Source of the DNA: Gracilariopsis chorda
Lineage: Eukaryota > Rhodophyta > Florideophyceae > Gracilariales > Gracilariaceae
DNA length: 64,000 nucleotides
Direction: 5' to 3'
NCBI GenBank assembly: GCA_003194525.1
Contig: NBIV01000268.1
Span: 1 to 64,000, forward strand
Shown: positions 7,641 through 48,295 of the stretch, piece by piece
How the letters are laid out: the number at the start of each line of letters is the position of its first letter
Numbering within the stretch: the stretch's first letter is position 1
Made by a program: the position numbers and the translations under genes
The notes under the pieces: model-generated
Seen by the model: only the letters and a program-made list of their open reading frames with translations
The model's database searches: none
What the model was told of the DNA's origin: nothing

Positions 7641-7649
7641 CGGGTGGAA

Positions 7650-7724
7650 GAGTGCCAGGCCGGGGTTAGAACCTTAACCACACAAAAAGCACACGAAGGT
7701 AGTTACCGGTTGAGCTATGGCCGC
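7650..7724 (-). other. tRNA-like sequence (decayed tRNA or SINE head)
   Basis: Read on the minus strand, 7717-7706 is TAGCTCAACCGG, matching the pol III A-box, and 7673-7663 is GGTTCTAACCC, one base from the B-box consensus. They lie 32 nt apart. The seven bases before the A-box (GCGGCCA) pair in part with TGGC downstream. A TTT triplet sits in the anticodon position of a CTTTTTG loop. The D, anticodon and T stems pair poorly, so this is not a normal tRNA. A SINE derived from a tRNA or a tRNA pseudogene fits best. Confidence 0.35.
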
Positions 7725-7789
7725 TCACGGTGTGGTGACCCAAGCCACACCGCTGGAGATGTTATTGTGACTCTGTGACTATCATCTGC

Positions 7790-10700: not shown

Positions 10701-11165
10701 ACATGCTCTCTTTATTTGCTCTGAGAGGTGTTTCGTTTCCTTTTCTGCTGCGGCCTTTGGCGGACTCTTCTTCCTTTCTTCTTTTAGCTTTAGTGCGAAC
10801 GAGAACGCCAGCAGCGAAGCATATGTTTCCTTCATGTACCACTGAAGCTGGAGCTAGGAAATGCTGAGCTGGCTGAACCCTCGGAGAAGCGGGAATAGCA
10901 GTATTGCATCGCGCCTATACCGACAGTACCTACGAAGCACCTTCAGAGATCTTAAGGAAGGTACGAAACTATACTTTGTACAATGGTCTCCTCTTTTGGA
11001 CAGGATCTGGTTCCTATCGATTGTATATTCCCTTCGAAGATCTCCCACGAACTGTGAGGGATTATTTCATGATGTAGGACATATTGGCGCGGACAAGTCG
11101 TACTATTCTGCACACAGATATGTCTTTTAGCAACGCATATATCAAGGCTTTTGGAAGCACGTGCG
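7790..11165. other. Unrecognised sequence, no supported gene
   Basis: Several ORFs of 60-110 codons occur on both strands (for example 10173-10499 plus and 10629-10835 minus). None shows a family motif. An (AAG)n run lies at about 8695-8713 and a short CA run near 9059-9072. Confidence 0.45.
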
Positions 11166-14703: not shown

Positions 14704-14745
14704 GAAGCAGTACTGAAGGCCGTTGAAAACGCCACAGCCAATGGA

Positions 14746-15759: not shown

Positions 15760-16638
15760 ATAGTTTCCCAACTAGCTGCGCCAACTAAGCTCTCGCTGCC
15801 TAAGGAAGGGTACAGAACTTGCCTCTTCACAGACGCCTCGGATTTTCATTGGTCTGCCATCCTAATGCAGTCGCCTGAGGAGGAAGAACGCAAATCAGTG
15901 GAAACCTAAAGGCACGAGCACATGTGTTTCTTTTCTGGTTCCTTCAGAGGTTCTTCGGAAAAATGGAGCGTCCCCGAGAAGGAAGGGTTTGCTATAGTCG
16001 AAGCGATGTGCAGAATGGACTATCTCACAGCTAGCAGAACGACCTCAATCTACACCGACCATGCCAACCTCGTATACAGATACGACCCATACGGTCAGAA
16101 CCCGGGGATCGTGCGACATGCAGCAAACAAGCTCATGCGATGGGCCCTCAAGCTGAGCGCATTCCGCTACATCATCGAGCATGTCCCGGGAGAGAAGAAC
16201 GTCTGGGCGGACATGCTCTCCAGATGGGCGATAGAGCCGAAGAAGACGGTACAGCCCTCTAATGTAGGACGAGTCAGCGCACTCATAGTCGCCCCGATCA
16301 ATCCAGGGATCAACGAACAATTCGATTGGCTATCGAAGAAAGAAATCATCGCATCACAGAATATGCACTTCACACAAGCTCCAAAGAATCTCTTGAAGCA
16401 AAAGAAGCCTTGGAAAATCGTTTCAGGCCAGATATGGATTCCCGAACCGGACAAGCTGCTGCGCCTACGAACGCTTATCGCCGCACATACCGGAAGACGT
16501 GACCACAGAGCATTCGACCCTACGCTAGCATCCGTATCGGAACACTTTCGTTGGAAGAACATTCGCGAAGACACCCAGCAGTTTGTATCATCCTGCTTTC
16601 ACTGCATTGCAACAGAGTCTGGTTCAATTGTACCCTGA
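15760..16638 (+). pseudogene. gypsy-1 RNase H and integrase zinc finger
   Basis: The same frame as RT carries LFTDASDFHWSAIL (first RNase H Asp), a TAA at 15907-15909 in a context that reads VET-stop-RHEHM (Gln expected), then KEGFAIVEAMCRMDYL with the Glu, IYTDHANLVY and HVPGEKNVWADMLSRW. After a spacer, AAHTGRRDHRAFDPTLASV...FHC is the HHCC zinc finger of the integrase. It ends in a TGA at 16636-16638 in the context IVP-stop-PLGHTMHA; CGA to TGA fits the usual Arg at this place. Confidence 0.85.
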
Positions 16639-30149: not shown

Positions 30150-32207
30150 GTAGTAACCATCATGGTATACTGTTGGGCTACAAAAGCCTCTAGAGTGGAG
30201 TCCCGTTTTTCTCGGTGGAATGTTGCTTGCAACACAGTTTCTACTGGGTTATGCAATAACTGCATTGTTTCTCTTCAAGAGGATTGGAGATCTAATAGGC
30301 CCATAACACTTGTATGACCTGTTTCGATCTCAAGACCAAGCTGCGTACCACACAAATCGCACCATTATTGTTACACACAATAACGCAGCCAGGACTGGGA
30401 TCGCCTTTTGTGAAACAAAACCTCAGCGAAATGTTTCAAACCCTTCCCTATACGCCTTTTGAGGGCTGTGAAAGATATAATCGTTCAGTCAATCGTCCGC
30501 TAACCCTGCGTCGTAAATGAAGAGTGCAACAATTGCAAGTTGATAAATCCACGTTGCCCTAAGGGAAACGCTATTCTTTGGTTTACAATTCGGAAAGAGT
30601 TTCGTCTACACTGATTCATTGATGTGCCTATCATAGTGACGGGCTTAATTTGGTATGAAATCCCGGCAATACGACCTACTAGATCGACAAACTACCATCA
30701 CAACAAAGCAGCAGCCCTAATCACAATACTGGATGAGTTCAGTTTTGGACCTCTCAGTAATCAAACGAGAATTGACGCTTTGACAAACTCTTTACATCTG
30801 ATTATTACGAGCAAAGTAAGGCAAAGTGTTATTGTCAGAATGCTACGTACTACGTGATGATGATCGAGCTCTACTGGAAAACAAAATGAAATAGTAGAAA
30901 TGATCTGATGAGAGAAGCGCTTTGCCACAAATTTGGAAGAAAGCTCTCGTCACAGAGCCTTAGATTAGCAGTCATCTTGTTTCTCATTCGATGATGTTAT
31001 TGACTTAACAATAGCAATAGTTTGAGGAGCTCTCTCCTTCTCGAGTGTTGGAAGAGTAAATATGAGCACTATGTAAGTGTTTCTGTGTTTCGCACAAGAT
31101 TGAAGCACTCTCAAGAGTTGTGTGTGTTAATACAACCAGGACCTTTGCAAGTCAAAAAATGTATATAGGATGTTAATATCAAAATATGTTGTCGAGAAAG
31201 TTAGTGTAGTTTGATCTTTCGAACATCTGCTCATTCCCAAGCCTTGTGCCTGCCACCGAATCTTTTGTATACATCAATACCAGGATATGGATGGACATCA
31301 CTTCAAGAGCACAACGATGATCTCCTACACTGAACCTGGACATTTCTTCATTCTCGTTCGAGAATCAAGCAAAGCTTTATCGATACAGACATCTTTCACG
31401 CTTCCTGACTTTTTTCCGCATCCCCGTATCCTTGTTGTCCACGAAATTTTCATTCGGCAAAATTGTCTTTCACGTCCTGAAATTGTACCTAACAGCATGG
31501 ATATGACAAAGGGTTAGTTGAGCCTGCGAACACATAAATCCTTTCTCTTCTGCATGGATGGAGGAGGCCATAATATAGATAAAAAAGTACATCCGGCCAC
31601 CATAGATTGGACAGAAAGTCGAAGAAAGATAGCCCTTCAATGCTGATTACTTTTATTGGAATGGCTGGCTATGAAGCACAAGAAGCAATCAGCCCGACAG
31701 AAACAAAAGAGCACTGTCTGGTCTACGAATTGACTGCACAAAAGACGACACAAAAGACTGGGACGCGATGTTGTTCATTTATAAACGTCTCATTCCGTCT
31801 CATTCCGTCTCATTCCGTCCATTCACATCGAAGAAAACAAACGTGAGAACGTGCAACAACAATTCCTAAACGTGTAGCTGAGAATAGCCAGTTTCAAGTC
31901 CAGTTGAGGGCCATTCGTTCAGAACTGCCGCCTTTGGATGTTTCTCCCACAAATTCTTCGCACGAAGGCGAACAGAGTTACAACGTCTACAGAGACTAGA
32001 AGTTTGTGCTGTTCATAATTCTTAACACATTGAAGGGCCACACTTATTCGTGGGTTTGGGACTCCGGTTAGTTCAGTATTGAGCCCAAGCTCTTTATAAA
32101 AGCAGCAGACGTGCGACCGATTCCTGAAGAGCTTGCAATTTCCCACAACCCTGGCATCTTTAGTTCTTCAAAGATATTCTGCTAAGTGAATAAGAGGTTT
32201 TAATATC
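30150..32207. other. Intergenic, no supported gene
   Basis: Short ORFs only (for example 31287-31517). The sequence is A/T richer than the TE regions. It presumably contains the promoters of the GST and redox enzyme genes, but no clear element was recognised. Confidence 0.45.
31787..31816. repeat. Three perfect copies of GTCTCATTCC
   Basis: A 10-bp unit is repeated three times without change, followed by a partial GTCCATTC. It lies about 390 bp upstream of the redox enzyme start. It could be a minisatellite or a cluster of protein-binding sites. Confidence 0.85.
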
Positions 32208-33080
32208 ATGGCAGCATTCATTTCCTCAATTTTTACTAGTTCATTTCTTCAATCTTCCAGTCCTGTGTTGAAAAGCTCAAGTGGCACTACATGTTCTTTG
32301 CCGCCCGGTCAGAGGTCGAAGATTGTATCTGTTCTAGCGCCAAGCACATCTGCGGTTCAGCAATGGAAAGCTGGCCCGATTACGACAATGGGGCAGTTCT
32401 GGGAACTAGCGGATGACTCTAAGCTAATGTCTCAGTATGATGCAGACAAAAAGATTGCTTTTTTAAAAGATGCGTCCTTGGAAGAGGTGCGCCGCATCTG
32501 CCTGCAATACCGATATTTTGTGGAAAAGTACCCGGATAACCTCGCCATGCTTATCAGCAAGATGCCGAAAGGAGAACTCAAGAGTCTGTTGTGCGATATT
32601 CTTTCCGAAGAAATGGGAATGGGAGACGTTAATGCATCTCACTCGACATGGTACGACTCTTTTCTGAGATCTCTCGGAGTGAGCGAATACCAGTTGAAGC
32701 ACTCACTCTATGCTGAAAACGAGAGCATTTTGAAGGAAACTGAGCGTCGCTGCCGAGAGGAGTTGGCTGTACACTGCATTGGACTTGTTGGAATGGGGCG
32801 GGAGTGCCTCTGTCAAATCTATCTTTCTCAGATGTACAAGAATCTTCGCCAGAATGCGGAAGTCGTGAAGATTGAGGAGCAAATAGACTGGTTGTTCTGG
32901 GACTTTCACACGGGAGATGATGACGTTGAGCACCGCATGAAAATGAGGGAACGCATTGGGGCATTGGTGATGGACGAGAACGGTGTAAGGCAACTGACAG
33001 ATGGGTATAGGTTTGCGAAAAATTCCTGGGATGAGTTTTGGGAGAACAACTATACGAACACTCGCTTCTTTCGGAACTAA
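32208..33080 (+). CDS. Iron-containing redox enzyme / haem-oxygenase-fold protein, probably plastid-targeted
   Basis: This is an intact single-exon gene of 290 codons. Residues 1-55 are rich in Ser and hydrophobics with Phe close to the start (MAAFISSIFTSSFLQSSS), typical of algal plastid transit peptides. The rest is helical and resembles the haem-oxygenase-like iron-containing redox enzyme family: CLQYRYFVEKYPDNLAMLISKMP, LLCDILSEEMGMGDVNASHSTWYDSFL (Glu and His ligands expected here) and a late DFHTGDDDVEHRMKMRE with further candidate His/Glu ligands. The chemistry of this family is diverse, so no substrate is proposed. ATG context is ATATCATGG; polyadenylation-like AATAAAA follows. It lies just left of the Harbinger TIR. 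Confidence 0.75.
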   Translation: MAAFISSIFTSSFLQSSSPVLKSSSGTTCSLPPGQRSKIVSVLAPSTSAVQQWKAGPITTMGQFWELADDSKLMSQYDADKKIAFLKDASLEEVRRICLQYRYFVEKYPDNLAMLISKMPKGELKSLLCDILSEEMGMGDVNASHSTWYDSFLRSLGVSEYQLKHSLYAENESILKETERRCREELAVHCIGLVGMGRECLCQIYLSQMYKNLRQNAEVVKIEEQIDWLFWDFHTGDDDVEHRMKMRERIGALVMDENGVRQLTDGYRFAKNSWDEFWENNYTNTRFFRN

Positions 33081-33192: not shown

Positions 33193-33531
33193 ACACCAAA
33201 TTTGTTTTGTTCTTGCAGCCTTCCTTCAGACTGAATTTGGCAAGCTAACCGTTTACGTTAGGACTCTGAGTCAAAGGTCGACTAGCCCGCAAGACACATA
33301 TCCAGAAAAGCCGGGAGATAGTAGTGCTTGCACGTTTCAGAAGGCAGCGTTCTGCTCAGAAGTTTGAGAATACATAGCGTATTGAACAGCAAGATAGTGT
33401 AAGAGGGCATAACGTCACAAGCCCTTCAAAGTATTTCTCTATCGGTTGACAACTCTTACACGACTCTTCACATACTAAGCAGGGAATTCCAGGGCCTGGA
33501 GAGGCTACATTCTCACCGTCACCTGAGATAC

Positions 33532-33561
33532 TAGAGGATTAACGCCGTAGAAAATCTCGTA
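33532..33561 (+). repeat. Left TIR of the Harbinger candidate
   Basis: It matches the right TIR at 27 of 30 positions. A subterminal hairpin (ATCTCGTAG ... CTACGAGAT) follows at about 33570-33605. TTATGGTATA near 33650 resembles ATTATGGTATA at the inner side of the right TIR. Confidence 0.8.
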
Positions 33562-33721
33562 TCAAATCTCGTAGCCACGACTTACACGAACGCTACGAGA
33601 TTTTGCGGAACAAAACATTATGTTTGCACCTTACGCAAAATAACTTATGGTATAGTTCGTAGGATACGCATCATGCGGTTGTCCACAGACCACCCAGTTT
33701 GGAACATGAGCCAAGATTCCA

Positions 33722-34874
33722 TTGCACTTTTACATGATGGTCCGCCAAGAAGAATACTCAATTTGGCTTGCTCGTTCTCGTTTTTTACGGCGCAAAACGC
33801 TGTTTCAACTAGCTCTCAATTCTGAAGCCGAACCATTGTTGATGCTAGCACTTTGGCGTCGAGTGCAAGTTGCAAAATATGATCTTCAAAACCTTAAACT
33901 TCGACGCTACCGCATTCAAAATCACAATTTTAACCTTAACATCTTCTCTGACGAACAGTGTCTACATGACTAAATTTTACTGTAACGATACTGGTAGAAT
34001 TTCTGTGGTTATTGGGTGGGATCTGCGTCATACACATCGCAATCGCTACTATTGTGACTCAATTACAGCCTGCTGTATCGTCTTGAAACGATTTTCTTCT
34101 GCTCATATATGGTATGATATGGAGTTAATATTTGGGATTAGATTCACACACATCAGTGAAGTATTCTGGGAAGCAGTTGAGCGATTTTTGAACCTAAAAG
34201 GTAGACTGGTAACCACTTTGCAGCAGCAGCTTCTGACATCTCGTGCGGCAATTTACGCAGACGCAATTCGAAGACGTGGAGCCCCTTTACAAAAATGTGT
34301 AGGGTTCATTGACTGCACAAAGGTAAGTGTATGTCGTCCAGGAGGAGAGGGGAGCAACCAAAGATCTTGTTTTTCTGGGCACACGCCGCAGCATTGTTTG
34401 AAGTATCAGACCATTTCTACCCCTGATGGCCTGATTTTTCATATGTTTGGCCCTGAAGTGGGACGCAGACACGATCTTACACTCCTGAAAAGAAGCGGGA
34501 TCGAAGCCGTTATGGAAAGGTGTATGATTGTGAATGGACTGCAGTACTATATTTACGGGGATCCTGCGTACGTGCTGCGACCATGGTCACAGACTTCTTT
34601 TCAGAGAAGCTGCGCTACTGCCATAAAGCTTGAGTACAACTGTTCAATGAATGCAATTCGAACTGCAGTGGAATCGAACTACAAAGACCTAAAACAAATG
34701 TGGGTTCGAAACGGTTTCTCACGTCTGCTTTGCGTTCGCCGATTTCCGGTCGCTCTTTTGTATATTGCGTCCGCATTGCTGCTGAACTTCAAGACTTGTA
34801 TTGAAAAAAGAGGACAGGTTAGCCGGTATTTTGATTTTGAGGCACCAGAGTTTGATTTGTACGGCAATATATGA
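33722..34874 (+). pseudogene. PIF/Harbinger DDE transposase, one frameshift
   Basis: The N-terminal part (33722-33973, ending NLNIFSDEQCLHD) and the main part (from about 33966, KFYCNDTGRISVVIGWDLRHTHRNRYYC) are in adjacent frames. A one-base shift near 33972 breaks an otherwise full protein of about 384 codons, normal for Harbinger transposases. The DDE site is intact: CVGFIDCTKVSVCRPGG (first Asp), QRSCFSGHTPQHCLKYQ, DGLIFHMFGPEVGRRHDLTLL, YYIYGDPAYVLRP (second Asp) and IRTAVESNYKDLKQMW (Glu). The enzyme cuts and rejoins DNA at the TIRs, with a Myb-like partner that binds subterminal sites. Its stop lies just before the ASPM-like fragment. Confidence 0.88.
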
Positions 34875-34879
34875 CCATA

Positions 34880-36599
34880 TAAGGACACACCGATATATTG
34901 ACCTATCTGCTTGGCTAAACCACGAGCTTGGTGATCTTGCTTCATCTGTATCCTATTTACCAACTCAAAACCTCGCCTCATCAGATGTCTTCATTGCACA
35001 ATACACAGCTGTGTTGTGCTTCTACAGGGGCCCGGCATTCAACGCTGAGGTACTGCGCTTTGGCAACAACATCAAGAAAGCCAACTTTTCCTTCAGTGCC
35101 GCTGTTTCTATTGCTACAGAACAACCTAAGTTTGAGCAGTTAGTTTCTCTGCTCACATTTCGTATAATTCTACTTGGCTTCTGTTGGGCCTGAGCCTTAT
35201 CTTGCACTCCAATTTCGCTCTTCAGATTGACGACGTACTACTGCAAGCTCAAAACACGCCGAACAAGAGAATAGACGTGGCAGTCTTACAACAGAAACTT
35301 GTCGACTACATTCTGCGCAACCATTTTACCACAGAGAATCCTGTTGCATCAAAGTTTCCCACTACTAGCCCAAGCACAGTTTTCACTCCGTCTTGTAATA
35401 TGGGCTCCGTCAAGCAGAATGGACTTCTTCCCTATCGCACCCTGTTGCTCATCATGTTGTTGGATCATGCCGGACAAGACACAGATGTTGTCAACAACCT
35501 TCCTTTTCCATTGTTCAAACCGGACTCATCTGTTCACAAGTCTTGAGAATTCGTTGATAAACTGAGCCAAATATGCTTGCAAACTCCTGAAAGTCTGAAT
35601 CGTTTTCTTGGAGACCTTGGATAGAGACTAGAATACGACTGTCCGCCGTGGGATCGAATCAGTAATTTTGCAGTCCGAGATCTTGGCACAGATTTACGAG
35701 AGGGGATCCGCTTTTGCAAGCTTGCTTCATTGCTTACTGGTGACCTTCTTCCTCTGCAACAGGTGAAATACAATTATGGTAGCCGGCTCAGTGATGCGAC
35801 TAGACACAAAAAGCACTCATTTAACATAATGATTGCGTTGGATACGATAAGCAAATACGCTGCAGATCGACTACGTGCTAAATTTCAATGGAAGGCGACC
35901 GCAAGAGAAATCATAGACGGTAACATACCTGAAACTGTGGCCCTTCTGTAGCAGATCGCTGAGCTCTGGATCGAAATCAAACTTCTGGACAACTCACTGT
36001 TAGTCGAAAGTCTCAGTGCAGCACAGGACGAATTCCGTGCCCGAACGGCGAATGCTGTGTGGTGTAGCTCACCGGAGACATTTCGAAAACTAAGCCCAAC
36101 GATCAAGAGTCCAAGCAGATTGGTTATCTATCAACGCACAGACAAAGATTGTATACGAAAGCTTCTTCAGTGGTGTGCAACCGTATGTGGTATTCACCGA
36201 ATTAAGGTCGTAGATTTCACTGAAAGCTTCAGGGACTGTGCTGTACTCTGTATCCTTCTGGATCAGCTTCATCCTGGCATGATTGAAGTCAAGAACATAA
36301 TTCGCGTCGCACCTGCAGAAAATCGGGATGAACAGGACTTGGTTAAGGAATTAGGGATTGTACGGAGCAATATCAAGCTATTCGAAGGAGCTTGTCAACG
36401 GCTAGGGGCTTTACCAAACATTTCTATTTCTGCCATGGCTGCCCTAGCCCCTCCATTTATTTCGCTCCTCAAAGAAGATTCATTTGGGAGACTAATGACT
36501 CTCATGACTGCCTACCTTTTTAAACGAGTAGAGCTAGGCAGAGGCGCGAAGGAGCGCCTGGAATATGTCCAGCAGCACGCAGAAAGAGAAGTGGATTGA
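34880..36599 (+). pseudogene. ASPM: ASPM-like (abnormal spindle) gene fragment with CH domains
   Basis: It starts with LSAWLNHELGDL and YRGPAFNAEVLRF. After a frame change near 35184 it keeps one frame to 36599. It shows LPYRTLLLIMLLDHA, then RISNFAVRDLGTDLREGIRFCKLASLLTG (first calponin-homology domain) and IIDGNIPETVALL. A second CH domain runs CIRKLLQWCATVCGIHRIKVVDF...DCAVLCILLDQLHP, as in ASPM proteins, which bind spindle-pole microtubules. Three in-frame stops break it: TGA 35544-35546 (Arg position), TAG 35622-35624 and TAG 35949-35951. The last is where LLW-QI has a conserved Trp. The N-terminus is absent; homology begins right after the transposase stop. It is a fragment, not a working gene. 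Confidence 0.75.
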
Positions 36600-37792
36600 A
36601 ATTTACCAAACTCAATACTACGGAAGAACGCTTCCTCAAGGCCGTATCTCCAAGATTTCAAAAGCATCGCAAACAGTACCGAGCGCAACGTGCCATCCCT
36701 CGATCCATCATTGCCGCGCAGCGCGCCTTTCATGCCACTTTTCATGTCACCGAGGGACAGTTCACCGATGAGACCCCTAGCGAAAGCGACACACAGCGCC
36801 TCGATCCCAACGTTCCTGGAGTTTTGTCGGGCAGTCAACTGGAGCCCACTGATGAGTTTGTAGAGATGAAAGATGTTTTTGTATCCAAGCAATGTCAAAG
36901 CAGAATATCCCTCGTTCTGTCCACAGTCGACACGGTAACTCTTTTTTGCAAGGCTGTTAACTACACCCTGTCTGTCACTGTCGTCGCCTTTATACAAGAT
37001 ATTGTTCTCATCGGACAGATGGAAATGACAAGCACCCAAGCTGGCACTCGTCGTGTTTCTTTAATGACCGTGGGCTTGCAAGCTGTTGCAGACTCTTACC
37101 TGTGCCTTGTACATCTCACTATGAGCATCGCTGTGCAGCCACTCTTCAATGTGTTTGCTACTGCTGCATTCTCCAAGTTCATCTGCTTCTCCATCTTTTT
37201 AATGAGATGAATGTTGCTCATATGGAAGGCACGCCACCCTTCTGGTTTCTCTGAAGGCTGGGAGGTGATGCGCCGAGAACTCTCCACGCTATATTCCCGA
37301 TTTTACGGCTCAATGTTGATTGGTATTCTTCTTCTTTATCAGCTCCAAAACCATATGCGGTTCTTTGTGTTCGCTTTGTTTTCGTTCTGGGTACCACGAA
37401 TAGTACTCAATGCTGTCGAAGACCATCGTCTTCTTCTGCTACCCTCGTATATTATCGGTACAACCGTCACTCGTCTTGCTATCCCATTGTACTTCTGGGG
37501 CTGCCCTTACAACTTTCTGCACGTGCAGCCGCAACCTGCATTGGCCATTGCTCTGGTTGTATGGCTGAGCACACAGGCTACTATTCTCTTGTCCCAGTAC
37601 AAATTTGGCTCGTGCTGGTTTATACCGAAAGAGCTTCTTCCGGAAAAGTATGACTAATTTCGTCCCATCGTCGTAGATGACGATTCAGCGGATCTTGAAG
37701 CTGGTGCTAGCGAGGACGAAATGGAAACCCGCTTCCCGCAGTGGAAACGACGGGCTGAGGATGCGCAGGAATGTTTTGTCAGGATCCGATAA
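36596..37792 (+). pseudogene. TUL1: TUL1/FLY-like transmembrane E3 ligase fragment
   Basis: The first 80 codons continue the ASPM-like tail style (RFQKHRKQYRAQRAIPRSIIAAQRAF, IQ-like). From about 36850 the protein becomes the membrane core of TUL1/FLYING SAUCER-type ubiquitin ligases: KAVNYTLSVTVVAFIQDIVLI, GQMEMTSTQAGTRRVSLMTVG, FNVFATAAFSKFICFSIFLMR, then IWKARHPSGFSEGWEVMRRELSTLYSRFYG, TRLAIPLYFWGCPYNF and FIPKELLPEKYD. About six membrane helices are visible. A TGA at 37208-37210 and a TAA at 37655-37657 interrupt it. The C-terminal RING finger is not recognisable: after YD a short acidic tail ends at 37792. Intact homologues reside in Golgi/endosomal membranes. Confidence 0.75.
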
Positions 37793-37845
37793 TCATCGCT
37801 CGCTCACCTCTACTCTTCGCAAGCTTTCTACGCCATCGCGAAGTG

Positions 37846-38598
37846 TAGCCTCAAAGTCCGACGACCGACCCGCTACAAAATGACGACCCACAGTCCTCAG
37901 CAGCATGTCAGGCCGCGCTGAAGAGCATGACTACCTCTGCCACCTCTTTACTTGGCTCCCCTCTCAAACTACTTGCTTCTCAACCCGTTGCGTTGCAGCA
38001 ACCGCAAACACCACTTGTCCTCGGCGATACTCATACTGCTGTTCCAGACTCCTGTGCTCCTTCACAGCTTGTTTCTTCGTATTTTTGTTTGCATCCGGAG
38101 GAGTCTGCCAATTTTTCAACTGATACCGCGCTAGTCGCTAACTTCGTTGGCACACCGTCCACCTCCAACATCGCTTTATCTGTTCTTGACACGCAACAGG
38201 ATTGTGTCGTGAATACTCCCTCCTCATTTACTCGCCCAGAGGAAATGATGGAGGACGACGAGGAGCTGGAGCAGGGGGAGCAGGAAAGGAGAGGGAGACG
38301 TTCTGCTCACAAATTTCAGAAGAGCGATACCGTTACTTCACTTGAAGAAGACCTCATTCCTCCCTTCCTCTTTGAGGGCACGATGAGTGACTATGGGCTC
38401 GACAACGCCCCACTTGCCGACCTTGGTTTTGCATTTTCTCTTGCAGAGGGTGATTCTATCTCCGTGAACTATTCCAGTTTGCACCCTGTCGACATAGTCG
38501 AGGATGGTCTGATTAAGGAAATGGGACTGAGACCTATCGACGATGTCAACATTGACATGCCTGACCATCTCATCAATGAAGACTTTGCTGGCATCTAG
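37846..38598 (+). CDS. Acidic, Ser/Thr-rich ORF of unknown function
   Basis: The frame is open from about 37846, with an ATG at 37927 that would give 223 codons. The protein has a low-complexity acidic segment (EEMMEDDEELEQGEQERRGRR) and a C-terminal acidic/hydrophobic region (DYGLDNAPLADLGFAFSLAEGDSISVNY) of the kind seen in activation domains. No fold is recognised. It follows the TUL1-like fragment on the same strand and may be the 3' part of a third captured gene. A T-rich stretch (TTTTTTATTTT near 38740) follows. Confidence 0.4.
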
Positions 38599-39344
38599 AA
38601 CAGTGCGAATCTGAATTATCCTTCACTGATAGCCTCAGTCAACCCTGTTGCACCGCCTGACTACGGACTGTAGCAAATCTCTAACAGCTCTGGGTCAAAA
38701 AAAGAGGCTCTTCACGTCATTCGTGGAAGGCTGTAGCTCTTTTTTATTTTAACTCAACATGCCTTGCTCTTCATCTCCCTCAACGGTTACCTGTGTCCCC
38801 ATCACCTCATTTCGTGCGGAATTGCTAAACTTGTATCGGATACCGAAGAAACTGGGTGGTAAGAGGAGGTTTCCATCGGCGATCTTAGACCTTCAACCCA
38901 TGTGTGTATAGACAATATCTCTGCTCCGAATCCAAGTCCGTGTTGTTCTGCAACTTCCCTTCAAGATAGTTTTGCCGCAATCCCTTTCGCGACTATTCGA
39001 TGTGCGATTCTATCATCCTTAGTTGCCTCATAGTTTTCGTAGGGACTTGAACAGTCGTCATATTACAAGAACACTAAAAGTCAATGTAGTTTAGTTTCCC
39101 AACTCTATCAAACCCCCCGAAAAGTGTCGAACAGAAAAGAATCATTCGGACTTGAACGACTACCATCGTACATATTGTGTCGCTAGCACTGCGATTAAAG
39201 GATCCCTTGGGCCCTCCAGTGTTTCGTGTGTGTACGAACTGCTGACCAAGACCACTGCTGATATTGGAAGACGGTGGACTAATTAAAGAACTATTATACA
39301 CAGGGACTCGTGGTTCGATCGTGTCCGAAGTCTCGAAAGTCTAC
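38599..39344. other. Non-coding stretch inside the Harbinger candidate
   Basis: No ORF above 80 codons with a motif; no internal TIR copy was seen, so there is no sign of a second transposon end here. Confidence 0.4.
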
Positions 39345-40915
39345 TCACGAGAAGCTTAGGTCCTTCAGTATCTCAGGACAAACTCGCTCCGCTAGTGAAT
39401 ACGCATAAACTTTTCCACAATCCTTCGCCATGGATTCTAGCATGCCCGTTAGTAGCCTTGCTCGTTCCGAGGGATCAGAGATTTTGTCAACGGCGCGAAC
39501 CACTGCATCGTAAAGGTCCCTCCATCTGTGCGACCAAAGACACGCGTGGCCATCCTCGATACTGGCTCGGATTTTCCGGAACAAGGCCCTTGCTCGTCTT
39601 ATGTGAGTGGTTCCTTGCTAAGTGTACACGCATGTATAAGACTGCGGTATGTCTGATGATTCGGAGGGTATCCCAAACGCTGCATATCCGGCAAGACCCC
39701 GAAAGCAGACACCACATCCCCTTCTTCTGCGTAGGCTTTGACTATCGTTTCTATGGCTACACGCTGAGGGCGGACATTCAACGCTTCCATAGCAGATAGC
39801 ATGCTTCGCAATTCAGCTCCACTTCGTTCTGGATCACCAGCTTTCCGAATCATCTTGTTCAAAACAGATGGAACACAATATCCAGCAAGACTCATCTCTT
39901 TTGCCAATTTCAGCACAGTTTCCTTGCGATCGCCACCGATTGCGGCAACGATCGCCGCAGTGTAAAGTTCTTCGTCCGGCTTTCCATAAATTTTCCGTGC
40001 TTTCTCAAGCATTTCCATGGCCTGATCAACATTTCCAGAACGTCCATATCCTGAACACACAGAAGTGAAAGTTAGTTTATTAGGACACATCCCACTTTCT
40101 TGCATTTTGTTCAGATAGTATATAACATCTTTGACGCGACTCTTCGCTGCATACGCACTAATAAGAGTTGAATAGGTAACAACGTTTGTCTGCAAACCCT
40201 CACGGTTCAAAGCATCAAAGGCAATCTTCATACTTTCGAAATCGTTCGCCTTGAAACATGCATGTATAGGCGCATTGTAAACAGGCAAATTGGGCTTAAT
40301 TGATAGCAACTCCATTACCAGTTGTTCGATGATCTCGAAGGCGCGAATAGCATCTCCGCTCCGACCGCATGCATCAGCCAGGGAGCACAGGGTTACGATA
40401 TCCGGGAGAATTCTGTCTTCTCGTATAAACTGAAGTACTTTAAAAGCAAGGTGGGATCGCTTAGCTCTCGCACATGTGTGAATGAGAGAGTTGTACGTAA
40501 CGAGGTTTGGTTCCAGACCACTCCGTTTCATTTCAGTCATAAGATCAAAAGCTTGATCCACTGCAACCGCTGCACTGCATTTTGCCCAAGCGTCAATTGC
40601 TACAGAGTATGTGACAATGGTAGGCGCAACCCCAGCTATTCGCATTCAGTGAAACAAGCGCAACGCAGCATCCAGCTCTCTCCAGCGGCCACAACCTTGT
40701 ATCAAATTGTCGTAGGTATGAGAGTTGAGATGGATTACGTCTTTCTGAATCATATCTTTCACCAATCCAAAGGCTCGTTCGAGGCGCCGAGAAAAAGGAG
40801 GAAAAACGCTTGTAATACAGCACTCAGTCAGACGGTCATCTTGAAAACACGTAAACAGACGCATGTATAGCGATCGCACCAAGCATGAACAAACAAACCG
40901 TTCTAACTGCCACAT
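39345..40915 (-). pseudogene. P-class pentatricopeptide repeat (PPR) gene, broken
   Basis: From 40915 to 39599 one minus-strand frame encodes tandem 35-residue PPR motifs, for example VTYSVAIDAWAKCSAAVAV, VTYNSLIHTCARAKRSHLAF, VTYSTLISAYAAKSRVKD, LTFTSVCSGYGRSGNVDQAM and QTYRSLIHACTLSKE, about ten repeats. A TGA at 40646-40648 interrupts LFH-stop-MRIAGVAPTIVTYSV. After 39599 a second frame (ALFRKIRASIEDGHACLWSHRW...ILKDLSFS) gives a plausible C-terminus, so a frameshift lies near 39595. PPR proteins bind organellar RNA. The N-terminus has no evident targeting peptide and seems cut. It lies inside the Harbinger candidate, between the captured fragments and the Myb-like gene. Confidence 0.8.
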
Positions 40916-40997
40916 CGCACGGACGATATAAGAGCAACCTGTAAAATACCACCTGGGGTAAACGAACCAATTAGTGTACCATCATATCCAGTTTACC

Positions 40998-41935
40998 TCA
41001 CTGAAGCTTCTTTGTCAAAGCTCCAATCAAACCAATCATCTGTTTCCTCTCTGCAAGTGCTAGAGCACGCTCTCCCTTTTCCATTTCAAATCGTTTCCTC
41101 TCAAGCTCCAATCTACTGTCCGCTTCTCTCCTCGAAGCCTCAAAATGTTGCCGATCTTTCTCGTTTCTTTCTCTTTCCATCTTCAAGCGTTCGTGTTCCA
41201 TGTCAAACCGCTTTTGTTCTAATATTTGACGTTCTTTCGAGTGCTCGAGAAGAAAAACTGTCATATCGTCAGCAGAATTAGAAGCCTCCAAACGTCGGGC
41301 CCGTTCCTGCCTGGCGATTTCGAGATATCAGTACCTCCATCACTTTTCACTGCAATTGTCTTGCGTTTCATAGCCTTCTTGCGTATTTCTTCACCGGCAT
41401 CAATTAGTTTTTTCTCATGTGCACTAAGCTCTTCCTTTTCTACCTTCACCGCTTCTGCTTTTTCGTCCATTTCAAGAATGCGATCATCTAGCAGCACTTC
41501 CTTCTCACCATACTCCTCCACAATTCCAGTTGCGGACACATTACGCCTATTGTCTGCTCTTCGTATAGCCACAAGCCTTTTAAATCGATTAATTAGCGTC
41601 TTCCGTGATGGACGGTTCATATGAGAAAACAATTCCCTAGGAACAACTGCAAGAAAATTATTCAACACTTTGTCAAATATCAAGTCAGTTTTGCCCCATT
41701 CTGGAACATGCGCGTCAGATTCTCGCACCGCCTGAAGAAGAAAAATATCATATGCTTGAGTAAACCAAAATCGCTTCAGTTTTTGCGTAGTGGACGATAA
41801 GGGAGACTCTTTTGGTAGTTCGGGAGAATGGGTTTGGGGTTTTCCAGGCAATCCTGTTGTAGTCTGCATAGCCTTGGCGTCTTTCGACGACTTTTCGGAA
41901 TGCTCGGACGTGCTCATGGTCAGAGAGCCGTTCAA
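40998..41935 (-). pseudogene. Myb/SANT-like Harbinger accessory protein, one frameshift
   Basis: The N-terminal part (41935 to about 41315) has LKRFWFTQAYDIFLLQAVRES...LNNFLAVVP and RKTLINRFKRLVAIRRADNRRN, a Myb/SANT-like DNA-binding domain. A charged coiled coil follows (VKVEKEELSAHEKKLIDAGEEIRKKAMKRK). A frame change near 41315 leads to EIARQERARRLEASNS and a long coiled coil (LEQKRFDMEHERLKMERERNEKDRQ...) ending KQMIGLIGALTKKLQ. Such proteins accompany Harbinger transposases and recruit them to the transposon ends. It starts about 175 bp inside the right TIR. Confidence 0.7.
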
Positions 41936-42079
41936 ACGTAGCGCGTCGTCTGCGAAAGAGGTATACCATCAGCTACTCGTATGGATGGTGGTTTGTACGA
42001 GAATTCGTATGAAATTCTCGTCCGTTTCGTAGCCACAAATGACAAGTGTGCATCCTGTCTCTGGTGTATACCATAATTG

Positions 42080-42109
42080 TACGAGAATTTGTACGGCGTA
42101 AATCCTCTA
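42080..42109 (-). repeat. Right TIR of the Harbinger candidate
   Basis: It is the reverse-complement partner of 33532-33561. Just inside, GTATACCAT occurs twice (near 41968 and 42066), a subterminal repeat of the kind bound by Harbinger Myb or transposase proteins. Confidence 0.8.
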
Positions 42110-42629
42110 CTGCCGGAAATGTGGTGCGATTTCAATTTGGTGTATCAGCTGGGGCTATTTTTTGCGATTGGGCGCGCATTGGTCATATATACTTTGAAGA
42201 TGAGATATGCATGTCATTAGAAATGTGGGTACGAGTACCGCTACAACACCATTTTCGGTCCTACACCAAGAAGGACATTGCTAAACACATAGGTCGCGCT
42301 TATGCCACCTACATAAAGGTAGTTGCGGGAGACAGTTATGGCACGTTTATCGTCAACGATTCAACCATTCTCATTGAACCTTGTCATTAAATGACAAATT
42401 TTGACATTTTCTCGTTTTGGAAACAAAAACGAAATTTCATTGACATTTTTATTGTTTCATTTCACACAGTGGTGTCCCACCAGGCCACCGCCAGAACATT
42501 CAACGTTGAATCTATTGGTGAGCATTGTTGAGTGGTTTGGTGATTCCGATCAGCTCTCCCAGCTGCGGAGACTCCTTTACTCTTTATATAGATTGCAACT
42601 GCGTAAAACCCTGCGAAAATCACAGGACG
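42110..42629. other. Flank left of copia-2; possible split LTR of copia-1
   Basis: No gene. On the minus strand TATATAAAGA lies at 42600-42591, as in a promoter. Since copia-2 was inserted directly to its right, this stretch together with 48749-48892 may be the interrupted 3' LTR of the minus-strand element copia-1. LTR ends cannot be fixed without a second copy. Confidence 0.3.
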
Positions 42630-42838: not shown

Positions 42839-43608
42839 TGATAGCCCTCGCTCAACCCTCCCCGCAGCCTCTCCCCTCGACAACCGCTGACCAACCTTCA
42901 ACCGGCGCTCCGCAACGCTCTGTACCGAACCATTTCTTGGACCCACGGAAGCATCAACATAAAACCTTTCTCTTCTCGCTGATAAACGGCTTCGTTCATC
43001 GTGTATCTTTGTGGCATTTCTTTTTCTTCTTCTTTTGATCTCTTTTCGTCGAACGGATAAAGGCGTGGTAGCTTGCAAGCTGAGTACCGGTACGGGAATC
43101 GATTGGGCACTTGAAGTAATCTGCTAGATTTGACATTCCTTCCGGATAACCGGCTCTGCTGGGGGAGGCTCTGTCTGCTAGTGGTGACACGGTGTGTCGT
43201 CATTCGGCCCAAGCTACCGCATACGCCAGTGGAGGTTTGTACTATCTCCTTCAACCTACCGCTCCGCAGAACGCCGCGCAGCATTCCTGCAAGAGGCCAG
43301 AAGGGGTCAACTGGTGAAAACTTATCTTCAGTTAGTAACCTCCCTTGGAAGCTTCGTAAGGATTCAAGGCACTTTGCTTCTTTTCGCGGGAAGCTTAGCA
43401 GGCAGATCAAAGCGACTCACCGGGAGAGTGTGACCCGGTTCCAGGGGTTGAACCCTTAGGGTAGTGGAGGTAGTTTCTCCTGTCAGTGCGCCCGCTCGAA
43501 GGAAGACTAATAAAAGGTACCTCGCTAGCTAGAGTTCAAGCAGACTAACAAAAGGTACTTCGATAACCAGAGGTCAATTCACTCTTTCTCTACTCACAAG
43601 ACATCAAC
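42839..43608 (+). other. Leader of copia-2 with 38-bp tandem repeat
   Basis: An untranslated leader of about 770 bp. At 43505-43542 and 43543-43580 two copies of a 38-bp unit (GACTAAYAAAAGGTAC...) lie just before the gag ATG. No standard tRNA primer site is recognised after the LTR (TGATAGCCCTCGC). Confidence 0.6.
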
Positions 43609-46182
43609 ATGAGTGAGATCAGAGAAGAAGGCAAGCGCACTATTCCCCGCCTTAAAGGATCCTCGGACTATTACACATGGAGGATCTACATAAGGGACCT
43701 GATGAATGTTGACCAAGTTCTCTTCGTCTTAACCGAACCCAGACCATTGGAAAGCGAGAGCTCAGCCCAAGCCCGCCGCCGATGGGATGATGCGGATCGA
43801 AAAGCTCGTTCGACCATTGTTCAAAACCTTGGAACACAACCAGTAGTTGCCGTTTCTGAATTACTGGAACGCGAACAATGTTCTGCGTTGGACGTCTGGA
43901 GGAAACTGGAGGGCACGTACAAGAAGGATAACATCCAAACCAAGATGAACCTTCGACAGCGCCTGAACAATCTCGTTTTCAAGGACGATGGAAATATCCT
44001 TGGACATCTCCATGAAATGGAAACAATCTTTCTAGAACTGGCACGCCTAGGAGATGATCTCAACGATAAGGAGAGAACTGCTTGCTTACTCAGAACTCTA
44101 CCAGACTCTCTTATGGCTATCACACTACTTGCAGACGCCAACGATATGGAACATGACCCAGTTGCTTCTTTGATAAGATCAGAAATGGACAGACGCAAAC
44201 ACAGGGACTCGAGAAACCAAACAAGCTCTGCACCTCCACCACCAAATACACAGCACTCCTACATGGCTGCGAGAAAGACATCCTTAATTTCCTCTGTGAA
44301 GAAAAGGAAGTCTAAATCCGTTAGATGTTGGCATTGTGGAAAACTAGGTCACATTCGTTCCGAATGCCGGTTGAGAAAAGAAAACAACCCCAACCAAAAC
44401 CATCGCAGCGGTCCCCAAGCCAACAAACACAAACACCAACCATCTAGTACTGAAAACAGGAACTGGGACTCCAACGGAGGATCAAACAAACCCTCAAATC
44501 ACTACAACCGCAACCCCCAGCCCCGAGGTTTCGTAGCTATTGCCGAAGCTAAATATTGTTCAGTGAACAATGGAACTACAACCTGGCTGGATTTTGGAGC
44601 GACTCATGTGTTTGTAAACGACAGAAATCTCTTCTGGGATTATGAGCCTGTGGAAAATGAGTCCGTCCGAACATGCGACAGACAATCGGAAATAGTTGGA
44701 GCAGGGACAATTATGCTGCCAGTAGGAGACGGAATAAGGTTACCTGCGAAGCACACACCTTCGTTTGACTCCAACCTTATTTCATTATACGTTTTATCAC
44801 AGCACACAAACGTTTCCTTTTCCAACGAAGACTCCTTTCATGGATTTGTCCTAAGTGACGTCAAAAACGGGAAAGAACTTCACCGCTGCAAAGCTAAAAG
44901 CGGTTTGTACCCACTACCAAAGCCGATCGCTCCATCGACAGCCCAAACGGCACAATTCATGCCCGGAAACACAGCAATTGACTGGCATGAAAAATTCGGA
45001 CACCCCGGCAAGGACAGGTTGCTTCGCACAATCCCGCAATCTTCAGGAATTCCTAGCCTGCCGACGACGGAAATCGAAAACATACATTGCAGTCCATGCA
45101 TGGAGGCAAAATCGAGGCGATCTCCAACCCAACGCTTGCATTCAGTGGCAAACCACCTCTTAGCTTTGACACACACAGACCTCACAAGCCCAATATCCCC
45201 ACCTTCGTTACAAGGATCAAAGTACATGCAGGTACTACTTGACGACAATACAACGGCATCATCAATATACTTCCTGACCAAAAAAGACCAATTCACGCAG
45301 TCAATACGTTGGTACAAGGCTCTCGCAGAAAACGAACAACCCCAAAACCGTTTGTACCGCGTTCGCCTCGACGGAGCTGGTGAGAATAGGTCTAATGAGT
45401 TTATCCATTACGCATTAGATAACGGGATCATCTTGGAATACACTCCTCCGCATGCACATGAGTCTAACGGCGCAGCGGAGAAAATTATCCAAGACTTATG
45501 GAAAACGGCCAGAACTCTGCTCTTTGCATCAAAATTACCACTCGAACTATGGGAAGAAGCGATATCGCATGCAAACTGGCTGCGAAACCGCCTTCCAAAC
45601 TCACGACTCGACATGAGAATCCCCTACAAAGAGTGGTTTGGACAAAATCCATCGTTCGATACATTACTGAAGTTTGGACAAGATGGCCATGCCTTTATAT
45701 ACAGGTCGGAAACCATGCCCAACAAGAAAATACTCCCACGCGCCATATACGGCCACTTCGTTGGAATGGAGAGCTTCCAAACACTTTATCGGGTATACAT
45801 ACCTTCCCAAAAGAAAGTGATCATGGTGAGGCAAAGGGAATTTAAGGTGGCCAAGAAAAGACTGCCTTCCATCAACGAGCTTCTCGACTTCTCGTCCTTG
45901 GGCAGGACAGAAGCAGAAGAAAGTAATGACGAAGTGGATGAAGAACAATTGGACTCTGTGATGCAAGGAGTAACTCGGTCATCCGAGGTGCGGAAATCAC
46001 CAAGTCGATACGCGACGGTTCATACGTCACACGTGTTTTCGGTAACCCGAGGGTTGTCAAAAGGGGACACTGAGCGATGCACGAGCGGGTGCGGTTCATA
46101 CGTGGATTTCCACTTTATTTGGGATGTGCACAGTAGGTGTTGGCCACGGGCCATCTACTTAGAATTATCTAGATATTTCTAA
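43609..46182 (+). CDS. copia-2 gag-protease-integrase polyprotein
   Basis: The frame is open for 857 codons. Gag: residues 1-200, including SDYYTWRIYIRDLM and LRQRLNNLVFKDDGNILGHL. A CCHC knuckle CWHCGKLGHIRSEC lies near residue 242. The protease active site reads WLDFGATHVFV near 325, with Phe in place of the Ser/Thr of D-(S/T)-G, one C-to-T step away and probably inactive. GAG-pre-integrase WHEKFGHPGKDRLL...HCSPCMEAK follows. The integrase core keeps all three acidic residues (THTDLTSP, RLDGAGENRSN, ESNGAAEKI). The last 50 or so codons are foreign: at about 46050 the frame runs into the inserted solo LTR. Confidence 0.88.
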   Translation: MSEIREEGKRTIPRLKGSSDYYTWRIYIRDLMNVDQVLFVLTEPRPLESESSAQARRRWDDADRKARSTIVQNLGTQPVVAVSELLEREQCSALDVWRKLEGTYKKDNIQTKMNLRQRLNNLVFKDDGNILGHLHEMETIFLELARLGDDLNDKERTACLLRTLPDSLMAITLLADANDMEHDPVASLIRSEMDRRKHRDSRNQTSSAPPPPNTQHSYMAARKTSLISSVKKRKSKSVRCWHCGKLGHIRSECRLRKENNPNQNHRSGPQANKHKHQPSSTENRNWDSNGGSNKPSNHYNRNPQPRGFVAIAEAKYCSVNNGTTTWLDFGATHVFVNDRNLFWDYEPVENESVRTCDRQSEIVGAGTIMLPVGDGIRLPAKHTPSFDSNLISLYVLSQHTNVSFSNEDSFHGFVLSDVKNGKELHRCKAKSGLYPLPKPIAPSTAQTAQFMPGNTAIDWHEKFGHPGKDRLLRTIPQSSGIPSLPTTEIENIHCSPCMEAKSRRSPTQRLHSVANHLLALTHTDLTSPISPPSLQGSKYMQVLLDDNTTASSIYFLTKKDQFTQSIRWYKALAENEQPQNRLYRVRLDGAGENRSNEFIHYALDNGIILEYTPPHAHESNGAAEKIIQDLWKTARTLLFASKLPLELWEEAISHANWLRNRLPNSRLDMRIPYKEWFGQNPSFDTLLKFGQDGHAFIYRSETMPNKKILPRAIYGHFVGMESFQTLYRVYIPSQKKVIMVRQREFKVAKKRLPSINELLDFSSLGRTEAEESNDEVDEEQLDSVMQGVTRSSEVRKSPSRYATVHTSHVFSVTRGLSKGDTERCTSGCGSYVDFHFIWDVHSRCWPRAIYLELSRYF

Positions 46183-46620
46183 TATTATTTACTGTAGCTA
46201 GTGCGGCACTCCGCAGTACTTAGTGACGGGAAGGCTCGCACCTCAGTAAACTGGAAGATCATCGGGCACGGAACCCAAGTTCCTAGTTCCTGGAGCCTTA
46301 ACCGGACCTCCGGACTAGTTATAACTTGCGGTCTCCCGCTAAGCTTCCACCCCACATGGATTTCCGTGCTACACCCGTGCTCACGCGACCGAACCCCGGT
46401 TACCCGGACAGAAGCACCCCTAGGCCTTGCCGCCGCAAGCGGCACCCCTATTATCAGGGTAATTCGTGGACATCCACATCGCTACCGAGTGGCCTCGCGC
46501 CCCTAGTGGTTGTACCACAGACTCACAGTGAATCTCCGAGGAGAGGTAATACAAAACCTAACCGTTTCCGATTCTAGGTCGGGAGACTACTTTGTAGTGC
46601 AATACCCGCAAGCGGGACAA
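46050..46620. mobile_element. Solo LTR inserted in copia-2 pol
   Basis: Coding sequence stops near 46050 and resumes near 46625. Between lies a non-coding stretch similar to the gypsy-2 LTR: a TATTATTTACT-type A/T block, then GGAACCCAAGTTCC-like text and repeated short inverted repeats (TGCCGC...GCGGCA near 46428-46444, CCCGCAAGCGGG near 46607-46618). Ends are about TTGTCAAAAGG and GGGACAACA; no clean target duplication was found. Confidence 0.6.
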
Positions 46621-46624
46621 CAAA

Positions 46625-48295
46625 CGAAGACGTTCGGATCTTCCCCTCTGGATGGTAACACAAGCTTTGGAACATTGTCTAGTGGCACACACTCGTTCAA
46701 CAAATAACAGTGAGCTGGACAAAGTACCAAAGACATTTTCCCAAGCAAGGACAATACCGGAATGGGCAGACGCAATCGACCGAGAGTATGATGCTCTCAT
46801 CGAACGCAAAACATGGAAGCTCATTGACCGGAAACCAGGAATGAATCCAATCCCATTCCTTTGGACATTTACGGCAAAACAACTCAGCGCAAAACCTTTG
46901 GATATCCTTCCTAAGGCACGTTGTGTGGCGCGAGGGGACATGCAGAAACCGTACATCGATTACGACCCTGAAAACATTTATGCACCTGTAGCAAGACTTG
47001 AGACAATAAGGTTGGCATGGGCAAAGGCTGCTGCGCAAGAACTTTTGCTGAAAACAATGGATATCAGCAACGCCTACCTGTACGGCGACCTCGATGAACC
47101 ATTTATCATGGAACAACACCAGAACTCGTCTGGAACTTCATACGTTCCGGGAAAAGTATGTCAACTGCTGAAATCATTATACGGGGCAAAGCAGGCTGGA
47201 AAGATCTGGGGATCGTTTCTACACACGACGTTGATCACACTGCAATTCCGTCAATCGAAAACGGACTACCGTCTCTATATATATCGATCAAGCAGTGGGA
47301 TACTGATTCTCGTCATCGTCGTGGACGACATACTGATTTTGTCTGACTCGAGATCTCTTCTGGACGACTTTAAAGCCGAAATGAAGAGATGGTTTCAAGT
47401 GAAACTATTGGGAGAAGCCAAATCATTCGTCGGACTTCGTCTCAGTCGGGACAGACATGGCATTAAGGTTGGTCAGGAAACGTATGTGGATAAGCTGCTA
47501 CGAGAATATAACCTCGGAAACGCAAATCCTGTGCAAACACCGTTGCGCCATGGCTACTCTATCATTAGTACAAGCGAAGAGGAACAGAAGCTGCCTCCTC
47601 CACTCCACCGGAAATATCGGAAACTGGTACGAAAACTGATGTATCTAGCCGTGGCTTCTAGACCAGACGTCATGTTTCCAGCTTCAATGCTGGCGAGACA
47701 GGTTCATAAACCTTTTTTAAGGCACTTAGCTTTGGCAAAGCGAGTGCTTAGATATTTAAAGGGAACAAAGAACCTTTGTATGCACTTTCCCGCAACCAGT
47801 GTATCACCTTTGGAAGGTTTTTGCGATGCGGACTGGGCAGGATGCCGAGAGACCAGGAAGTCAACGACGGGAGTACTGACTAAAGTAAACGATGCTCCAA
47901 TCCTATGGACTAGCAAGAAACAGACAATCGTGGCTTTGTCTTCGGGAGAAGCTGAGTACGTTGCTTTATCGTATTGCGCTAAGTTAGTGACTTGGATCCG
48001 AAGACTATTTTGGGAGCTTCATCATTGCCAAATTCTGCAAGAAGAGCCTATCGGAATGTACCCCGTCTGTATCTATACAGACAGTTCTACGGCAAACTCT
48101 ATTGCAAAGACTTCGAAAACGTCTGAGAGAAACAAACATATTTCTCTGAAATACCATCATGTCAAAAACCTTGTGAAGTCTGGAATGCTGCAAATAGTTG
48201 AGATCAGAACTGATTCCCAGCCGGCTGACATAATGAAAAAAGCTGCTAACCGAGAAAGCTTATACCAACTTTCTGTTTTGTGCGGACTACAATAA
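46625..48295 (+). CDS. copia-2 reverse transcriptase and RNase H
   Basis: The frame is open from about 46625, with the first ATG at 46652. RT: ARTIPEWADAIDREYDAL and KARCVARGDMQKP (KARLVARG-like), then KTMDISNAYLYGDL (motif A), SLYGAKQAGKIW (motif B) and LVIVVDDILILSD (VVDD in place of YVDD). KLLGEAKSFVGLRLSRD and YRKLVRKLMYLAVASRPDV form the connection. RNase H: FCDADWAGCRETRKSTTG, LSSGEAEYVALS, YTDSSTANSIAKT and KSGMLQIVEIRTDSQPADIMKKA. No internal stop. It is the C-terminal half of the polyprotein split by the solo LTR. Confidence 0.88.
   Translation, partial: RRRSDLPLWMVTQALEHCLVAHTRSTNNSELDKVPKTFSQARTIPEWADAIDREYDALIERKTWKLIDRKPGMNPIPFLWTFTAKQLSAKPLDILPKARCVARGDMQKPYIDYDPENIYAPVARLETIRLAWAKAAAQELLLKTMDISNAYLYGDLDEPFIMEQHQNSSGTSYVPGKVCQLLKSLYGAKQAGKIWGSFLHTTLITLQFRQSKTDYRLYIYRSSSGILILVIVVDDILILSDSRSLLDDFKAEMKRWFQVKLLGEAKSFVGLRLSRDRHGIKVGQETYVDKLLREYNLGNANPVQTPLRHGYSIISTSEEEQKLPPPLHRKYRKLVRKLMYLAVASRPDVMFPASMLARQVHKPFLRHLALAKRVLRYLKGTKNLCMHFPATSVSPLEGFCDADWAGCRETRKSTTGVLTKVNDAPILWTSKKQTIVALSSGEAEYVALSYCAKLVTWIRRLFWELHHCQILQEEPIGMYPVCIYTDSSTANSIAKTSKTSERNKHISLKYHHVKNLVKSGMLQIVEIRTDSQPADIMKKAANRESLYQLSVLCGLQ

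What the first reader, a model, noticed from the sequence alone, without database searches (positions are those of the whole stretch)
33532..42109. Harbinger transposon that appears to have captured ASPM-, TUL1- and PPR-like gene fragments
30-bp TIRs (27 matches) enclose 8.6 kb. Transposase and Myb-like partner lie just inside opposite ends and point inward, as one element would. The 6.1 kb between them is a run of unrelated host-like gene pieces, all broken. Gene-capturing Mutator elements (Pack-MULEs) and Helitrons are well known; a PIF/Harbinger element with several host cargo fragments, here including spindle, ubiquitin and RNA-binding gene pieces, would be unusual.
Basis: partly seen in the sequence, partly recalled or inferred. 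Interest (0 to 1): 0.88.

Follow-up and report, generated by a model that had tools for sequence, protein, structure and literature searches.

The report
Jumping gene that collects host genes
In a red seaweed, a cut-and-paste transposon of the PIF/Harbinger type has taken up pieces of four ordinary host genes in successive steps and carried the whole 8.6-kb package to at least four places, with partly loaded relatives left behind as intermediates.

Summary
The finding holds. Window 33533-42108 is one PIF/Harbinger element with a 3-bp ACT target duplication. A 98% identical empty site elsewhere has a single ACT at the exact breakpoint. Three more full-length copies (95.7-97.7%) lie on other contigs in different flanks, each between 3-bp duplications, so the unit moved as one piece. 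The ASPM, TUL1 and MYB donors are open, longer genes outside any element; the PPR donor is open as far as held. The order is legible: relatives carry ASPM without TUL1; one (C317) carries ASPM+TUL1 without MYB/PPR; in all four window-type copies a 24-bp remnant of the TUL1 segment's far edge lies beyond MYB/PPR. So MYB/PPR replaced TUL1 DNA inside a loaded element. Cargo decays about neutrally; the TUL1-MYB join is out of frame. Relatives carry other cargo (parts of a 10-kb ASPM-locus span, STT3, iPGM, a VPS13-like gene). The host matches Gracilariopsis chorda. Harbinger capture has precedents (Turmoil-1, Pack-PIF); serial, nested, multi-kilobase capture beside a transposase gene is the variant.

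The parts
33530..33532 (.). left target-site duplication ACT
33533..33561 (+). left terminal inverted repeat
   Evidence: 27 of 30 matches with the right end, counting one duplication base; similar, with a few substitutions, at 12 of the 13 further left ends printed (C7 diverged)
33734..34874 (+). transposase gene (DDE_Tnp_4), one frameshift in this copy
   Evidence: PF13359 E 3.8e-15; 1 frameshifting indel, 0 stop-making substitutions against the C1 copy
34900..36597 (+). captured fragment of an ASPM-like gene (parent codons about 118-683, with the CH region)
   Evidence: 95.8% to C87:69303-71001; parent frame open; 3 stop-making substitutions and 1 frameshift here
36603..37723 (+). captured fragment of a TUL1-like E3 ligase gene (parent codons about 142-515, without the RING)
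   Evidence: 96.4% to C79:210693-211813; parent 576 aa with DUF2921 and RING
37722..38673 (+). captured 3' half of an R2R3-MYB gene (parent codons from 166; DNA-binding repeats absent)
   Evidence: 97.3% over 37722-40198 to C1:25854 onward; parent 483 aa
38674..39344 (.). captured intergenic DNA between the MYB and PPR genes
   Evidence: within the continuous 37722-40788 match to C1:25854-28927
39345..40788 (-). captured 3' part of a PPR gene
   Evidence: PPR repeats E 4.3e-46; same continuous C1 match; frameshift in the part compared
40789..40812 (+). 24-bp remnant of the far edge of the earlier TUL1 capture
   Evidence: 3 mismatches in 27 bases to C79; 10 or more in 27 at the best other sites in C79 and in the rest of the window
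40998..41918 (-). SANT/Myb-like partner gene (one frameshift and one stop here; 306 aa open from the first Met in C267, C34, C3)
   Evidence: fold match residues 66-182
42080..42108 (-). right terminal inverted repeat
42109..42111 (.). right target-site duplication ACT

Best explanation
It is a PIF/Harbinger DNA transposon of a red alga (protein and contig match: Gracilariopsis chorda) whose interior was replaced step by step with chromosomal DNA from three loci on different contigs. SHOWN: the unit has TIRs, a 3-bp duplication and an exact empty site; it exists in four full copies in unrelated flanks; ASPM DNA came first, TUL1 DNA second, MYB/PPR DNA third, the last replacing the middle of the TUL1 segment; the cargo is genomic DNA (it includes intergenic sequence) and decays about neutrally. 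INFERRED: each acquisition was a faulty repair of a break or gap inside the element (for example after abortive excision), in which the broken end copied another locus by template switching and was rejoined with a few bases of microhomology or filler. The loaded element was then moved by transposase and partner supplied in cis or by sister copies, some of which still have an open frame for one or the other protein.
For: Four full copies. Identical 3-bp TSDs in 7 of 8 two-ended elements inspected. Empty site with a single ACT. Open donor genes without a TIR at 3 or fewer mismatches and without transposase match in the held flanks. Intermediates: C86 and C99 carry ASPM with its native 5' side and are not among the 7 TUL1 matches; C317 carries ASPM plus 2.6 kb of the TUL1 locus but no MYB/PPR. 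24-bp TUL1 footprint right of MYB/PPR in 4 of 4 copies. Junctions with 2-4 shared bases or short filler. Near-neutral cargo substitutions. Open transposase frame in C1, C48, C317 and open partner frame in C267, C34, C3.
Against: No repair intermediate can be observed, so the capture chemistry is inferred. Block histories are reticulate: the window group shares the 34898|34900 deletion with type-1/type-2 elements but the ASPM|TUL1 junction with C317, and its right end is 95-99% like type-2 but 90-91% like C317, so exchange between copies also occurred. None of the 8 two-ended elements has both protein frames open: C1 and C317 have an open transposase and a broken partner; C3, C267 and C34 the reverse; the window and C95 neither; C5 carries neither gene. 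Substitutions between transposase copies are themselves close to neutral, so selection on the machinery is not shown. C3's duplication differs by one base. The C87 donor holds short stretches (70-250 bp, 74-82%) like the inner right end of elements, not explained.
Confidence: 0.85

Rival explanations
1. Two-element (composite) capture, as proposed for Pack-CACTA: two neighbouring elements flanking a host locus lose their facing ends and move as one, taking the host DNA with them.
For: Cargo is contiguous chromosomal DNA, up to 6.5 kb unbroken from the ASPM locus in type-1 elements. The blocks of the window unit have different closest relatives: end blocks type-2, TUL1 block C317. Model seen in passages of PMC13317346.
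Against: For the MYB/PPR step, TUL1 sequence remains on both sides of the new DNA (1.1 kb left, 24 bp right), which needs insertion inside one loaded element or a right-hand element that already carried TUL1. No TIR at 3 or fewer mismatches in the held donor sequence.
Confidence: 0.2
2. Nested or mis-assembled mosaic: two separate Harbinger fragments with unrelated gene pieces between them by accident.
For: The transposase and the partner of the window copy are both frameshifted.
Against: Four copies with the same architecture in different flanks, TSDs, and an exact empty site.
Confidence: 0.01
3. Reverse flow: the chromosomal genes derive from element cargo.
For: Sequence identity alone has no direction.
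Against: Held chromosomal frames are open and longer than the element pieces; TUL1 is conserved across red algae and plants (60% to Chondrus crispus); element pieces lack the RING and the MYB repeats and carry stops or frameshifts. Conservation of the other donors was not searched.
Confidence: 0.02
4. The cargo is kept because it works (selected chimeric gene or regulator of the donors).
For: The PPR part compared shows a synonymous excess: 8 of 16, 12 of 24, 12 of 23 and 14 of 38 substitutions in the four copies, against 0.28 expected. The type-2 VPS13-like frame is open over 1140 aa in C1.
Against: ASPM, TUL1 and MYB parts scatter around the neutral expectation; stops or frameshifts in all four window-type copies; TUL1-MYB join out of frame (frame arithmetic).
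Confidence: 0.05

Closest known systems
Turmoil-1 (Harbinger, Caenorhabditis elegans; PMC2572040, passages read)
   Same: Harbinger with a transposase that took up fragments of two host genes
   Different: There the fragments lie in 760-bp inverted repeats and one complete 5-kb copy is reported; here DNA of three donor loci fills the interior in successive steps, with four full copies and intermediates
Pack-PIF elements of maize and rice (Pack-TYPE; PMC8903248, passages and section 8 read)
   Same: PIF/Harbinger ends enclosing pieces of host coding DNA
   Different: Pack-TYPE elements are defined there as non-autonomous, without a transposase match; this one keeps transposase and partner sequences
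Pack-MULEs and Pack-CACTA (PMC13317346, passages read; otherwise recalled)
   Same: Transduplication of gene fragments by TIR elements
   Different: Other superfamilies (recalled: other target duplications)

Membership tests
PIF/Harbinger superfamily | DDE transposase of the Harbinger type | tested here: met
   PF13359 E 3.8e-15 in the window copy, 4.1e-17 in C1
PIF/Harbinger superfamily | Myb/SANT-like second protein | tested here: inconclusive
PIF/Harbinger superfamily | 25-50 bp terminal inverted repeats | tested here: met
   27 of 30
PIF/Harbinger superfamily | 3-bp target duplication | tested here: met
   7 of 8 two-ended elements identical; single ACT at the empty site. Consensus here is ANT; the TTA/TAA common in plants was not seen in those 8
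Pack-TYPE | host coding DNA between TIRs, with parent genes elsewhere | tested here: met
Pack-TYPE | non-autonomous, no transposase sequence | tested here: not met
   transposase sequence present, though frameshifted in this copy
Turmoil-1-like capture | captured pieces inside long inverted repeats | tested here: not met
   cargo lies between transposase and partner; the terminal match tested is 30 bp

The most novel reading that the evidence does not exclude
A Harbinger lineage works as a cassette carrier: an almost constant shell (transposase end and partner end 98.5-99.4% identical between C267/C34 and C1/C3) is found around different host cargoes of about 6 kb (TUL1-MYB-PPR, or a VPS13-like gene; only a short ASPM stretch is shared), with cargo exchanged by repair-driven replacement. 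In one branch the VPS13-like gene, still open over 1140 codons in C1, has no close chromosomal parent in the assembly and may now live only inside the transposon.
Probability: 0.25. Interest if true: 0.8.

Novelty: new variant of a known kind. Interest (0 to 1): 0.62.

Why it matters
How DNA transposons pick up pieces of host genes is unsettled; a 2026 review says an undiscovered route for unlinked fragments may exist (PMC13317346, passages). This family offers ordered intermediates in one genome: unloaded donor loci, elements with one, two and three captured loci, and a footprint showing that new DNA replaced older cargo within an element. That makes repair-based models testable. It also shows multi-gene capture by a PIF/Harbinger element in a red alga; the searches made here (listings only apart from the three papers cited) brought up plant and nematode cases of Harbinger capture and none that I saw from red algae.

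Tried and rejected
Mosaic or assembly accident: rejected by four copies, TSDs and empty site. Donation from element to host: rejected. In-frame TUL1-MYB fusion: frames do not match at the junction. A close parent for the type-2 VPS13-like cargo: none found; C31 is 31% identical, C260 holds broken pieces. Myb domain by Pfam: no match, so a model and fold search were used. Homology-directed capture at the ASPM locus was considered, because the element's inner right end resembles the same locus at 74-82%, but the junctions of the large segment do not sit at that homology; left open.

Not done: expression, small RNAs, other strains or species, dating in years, the full PPR donor gene, the STT3 and iPGM donors.

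Full report
WHAT IS THERE. The 8.6-kb unit is a single insertion. Its 30-bp ends match at 27 of 30 positions. It is flanked by ACT on both sides, and a 98% identical sequence on contig C122 lacks the unit and has one ACT exactly at the join. Four more hits of the joined flanks at 78-83% (three on C167, one on C399) show that the target is itself a repeated sequence. Among eight two-ended elements of the family that I inspected, seven have identical 3-bp duplications of the form ANT and one (C3) differs by a base. The genome (91.3 Mb, 1081 contigs) matches Gracilariopsis chorda: the TUL1 donor protein is 100% identical to a protein of that species on a contig of the same length as C79.

COPIES. 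The left 169 bases give 35 matches in the genome and the right 1.1 kb gives 37, some short and weak; both counts include the window and are lower bounds by the tool's statement. I fetched 20 of the 34 left-end places other than the window. Three (C267, C34, C95) are full-length copies of the window unit at 97.6, 97.7 and 95.7%. The 400-base flanks of these four and of C3, C1 and C317 (371 bases on one side of C1) do not resemble each other.

CARGO AND DONORS. Between the two protein genes lie three captured blocks. Block B (34900-36597) is 95.8% identical to C87, where an ASPM-like gene with a CH domain reads open over two overlapping fetched stretches, about 2129 codons. Block C (36603-37723) is 96.4% identical to C79, a 576-aa TUL1-like E3 ligase with DUF2921 and RING domains. 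Block D (37722-40788) matches C1:25854-28927 continuously and holds the 3' half of an R2R3-MYB gene, the intergenic DNA and the 3' part of a tail-to-tail PPR gene. The donor stretches held show no TIR at 3 or fewer mismatches (two 4-mismatch sites in C87) and no transposase match; C87 has short stretches like the inner right end. The RING and the MYB repeats are not included in the captured pieces of the window copy. The TUL1-MYB join is out of frame.

ORDER. C86, C99 and C317 keep about 696 bp more at the left edge of the ASPM block, including sequence from 94 bp upstream of the donor start codon. C317 has ASPM, then 2593 contiguous aligned bases of the TUL1 locus at 96%, then the right end, and no MYB/PPR. 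The window group shares the ASPM|TUL1 junction with C317. In all four window-type copies, 24 bases right of MYB/PPR are the far edge of that TUL1 segment (window copy: 3 mismatches in 27 bases; the best other sites in C79 and the rest of the window have 10 or more); C78 and C99 lack it. So MYB/PPR DNA replaced the middle of a TUL1 segment inside a loaded element. Junctions show a few shared bases (TG at TUL1|MYB, ACG in C86, TCAC in C99) or a few filler bases at ASPM|TUL1.

THE WIDER FAMILY. Joined over all elements, the stretch taken from the C87 locus spans about 10 kb (positions 956-10985 of the joined donor), but no single element inspected holds all of it. Type-1 elements (C48, C103, C156, C49, C304, C78) keep a short ASPM stretch, lack 2.8 kb of it, and then carry up to 6.5 kb more: the rest of ASPM, a glycosyltransferase-like gene (weak Pfam match) and part of an EME1/MUS81-like gene. 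They continue into a piece of STT3 that matches C137 at 93%, C103 and C304 up to their contig ends. Type-2 elements (C1, C3, C47) carry a VPS13-like gene (weak Pfam match, E 0.01) without a close parent. C5 carries an iPGM piece in about 3.1 kb, and C13, C22 and C619 match its interior at 98-99%; an iPGM donor was not identified. C267 and C34 share their two end blocks with C1 and C3 at 98.5-99.4% although the interiors differ apart from a short ASPM stretch, so shells and cargo have been recombined. C95 is more distant (95-97% in the same blocks).

DECAY. Against the donors, the synonymous share of substitutions in the ASPM, TUL1 and MYB blocks runs from 0.16 to 0.39 (15 copy-by-gene comparisons), around the 0.28-0.29 expected without selection. 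PPR is higher (0.37-0.52 in 4), which may reflect selection on the donor, on the cargo, or chance. All four window-type copies have stops or frameshifts in the cargo. The window copy's transposase and partner are each frameshifted; differences between transposase copies are also close to neutral (all). Open transposase frames exist in C1, C48 and C317, and open partner frames in C3, C267 and C34, of 10 sequences examined; none of the eight two-ended elements has both.

MECHANISM. Shown: serial replacement by genomic DNA, transposition of the loaded unit, near-neutral decay. Inferred: faulty repair of breaks in the element with template switching. The two-element model remains possible for the earlier captures but fits the MYB/PPR step poorly.

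LITERATURE. Turmoil-1 (PMC2572040; passages read) and Pack-PIF (PMC8903248; passages and section 8 read) are precedents, so this is a variant, not a new kind. A search for Gracilariopsis chorda with Harbinger found no paper in the held library; that library lacks most subscription papers, and the genome paper of this species (recalled) was not seen.

Noticed in passing
L015:1968-5387 (-), element on C1: VPS13-like cargo open over 1140 codons in a type-2 element; no close chromosomal parent in the assembly (C31 31% identical, C260 broken pieces).
   Followed up: partly
L044 about 4660-5360 (C87:77060-77760); window 40825-40894: The inner right end of the elements resembles the intergenic region beside the ASPM donor at 74-82%, and C5-type elements carry the neighbouring gene end at about 82%: perhaps an older capture from the same or a paralogous locus.
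   Followed up: partly
G000:C86 and G000:C182 elements: Two family members span about 25 and 22 kb. In C86 the cargo match is interrupted by about 11 kb with a 3-base overlap of the pieces, and its right end is split as well, which suggests nested insertions.
   Followed up: no
window 43567-48292 and 14704-16635: Copia-type gag/RT frames right of the element and a reverse-transcriptase/RNase H/integrase stretch to the left: the window is rich in retroelements.
   Followed up: no
window 32190-33077: 296-codon open frame with a Haem_oxygenas_2 domain (E 6e-12) just left of the element.
   Followed up: no
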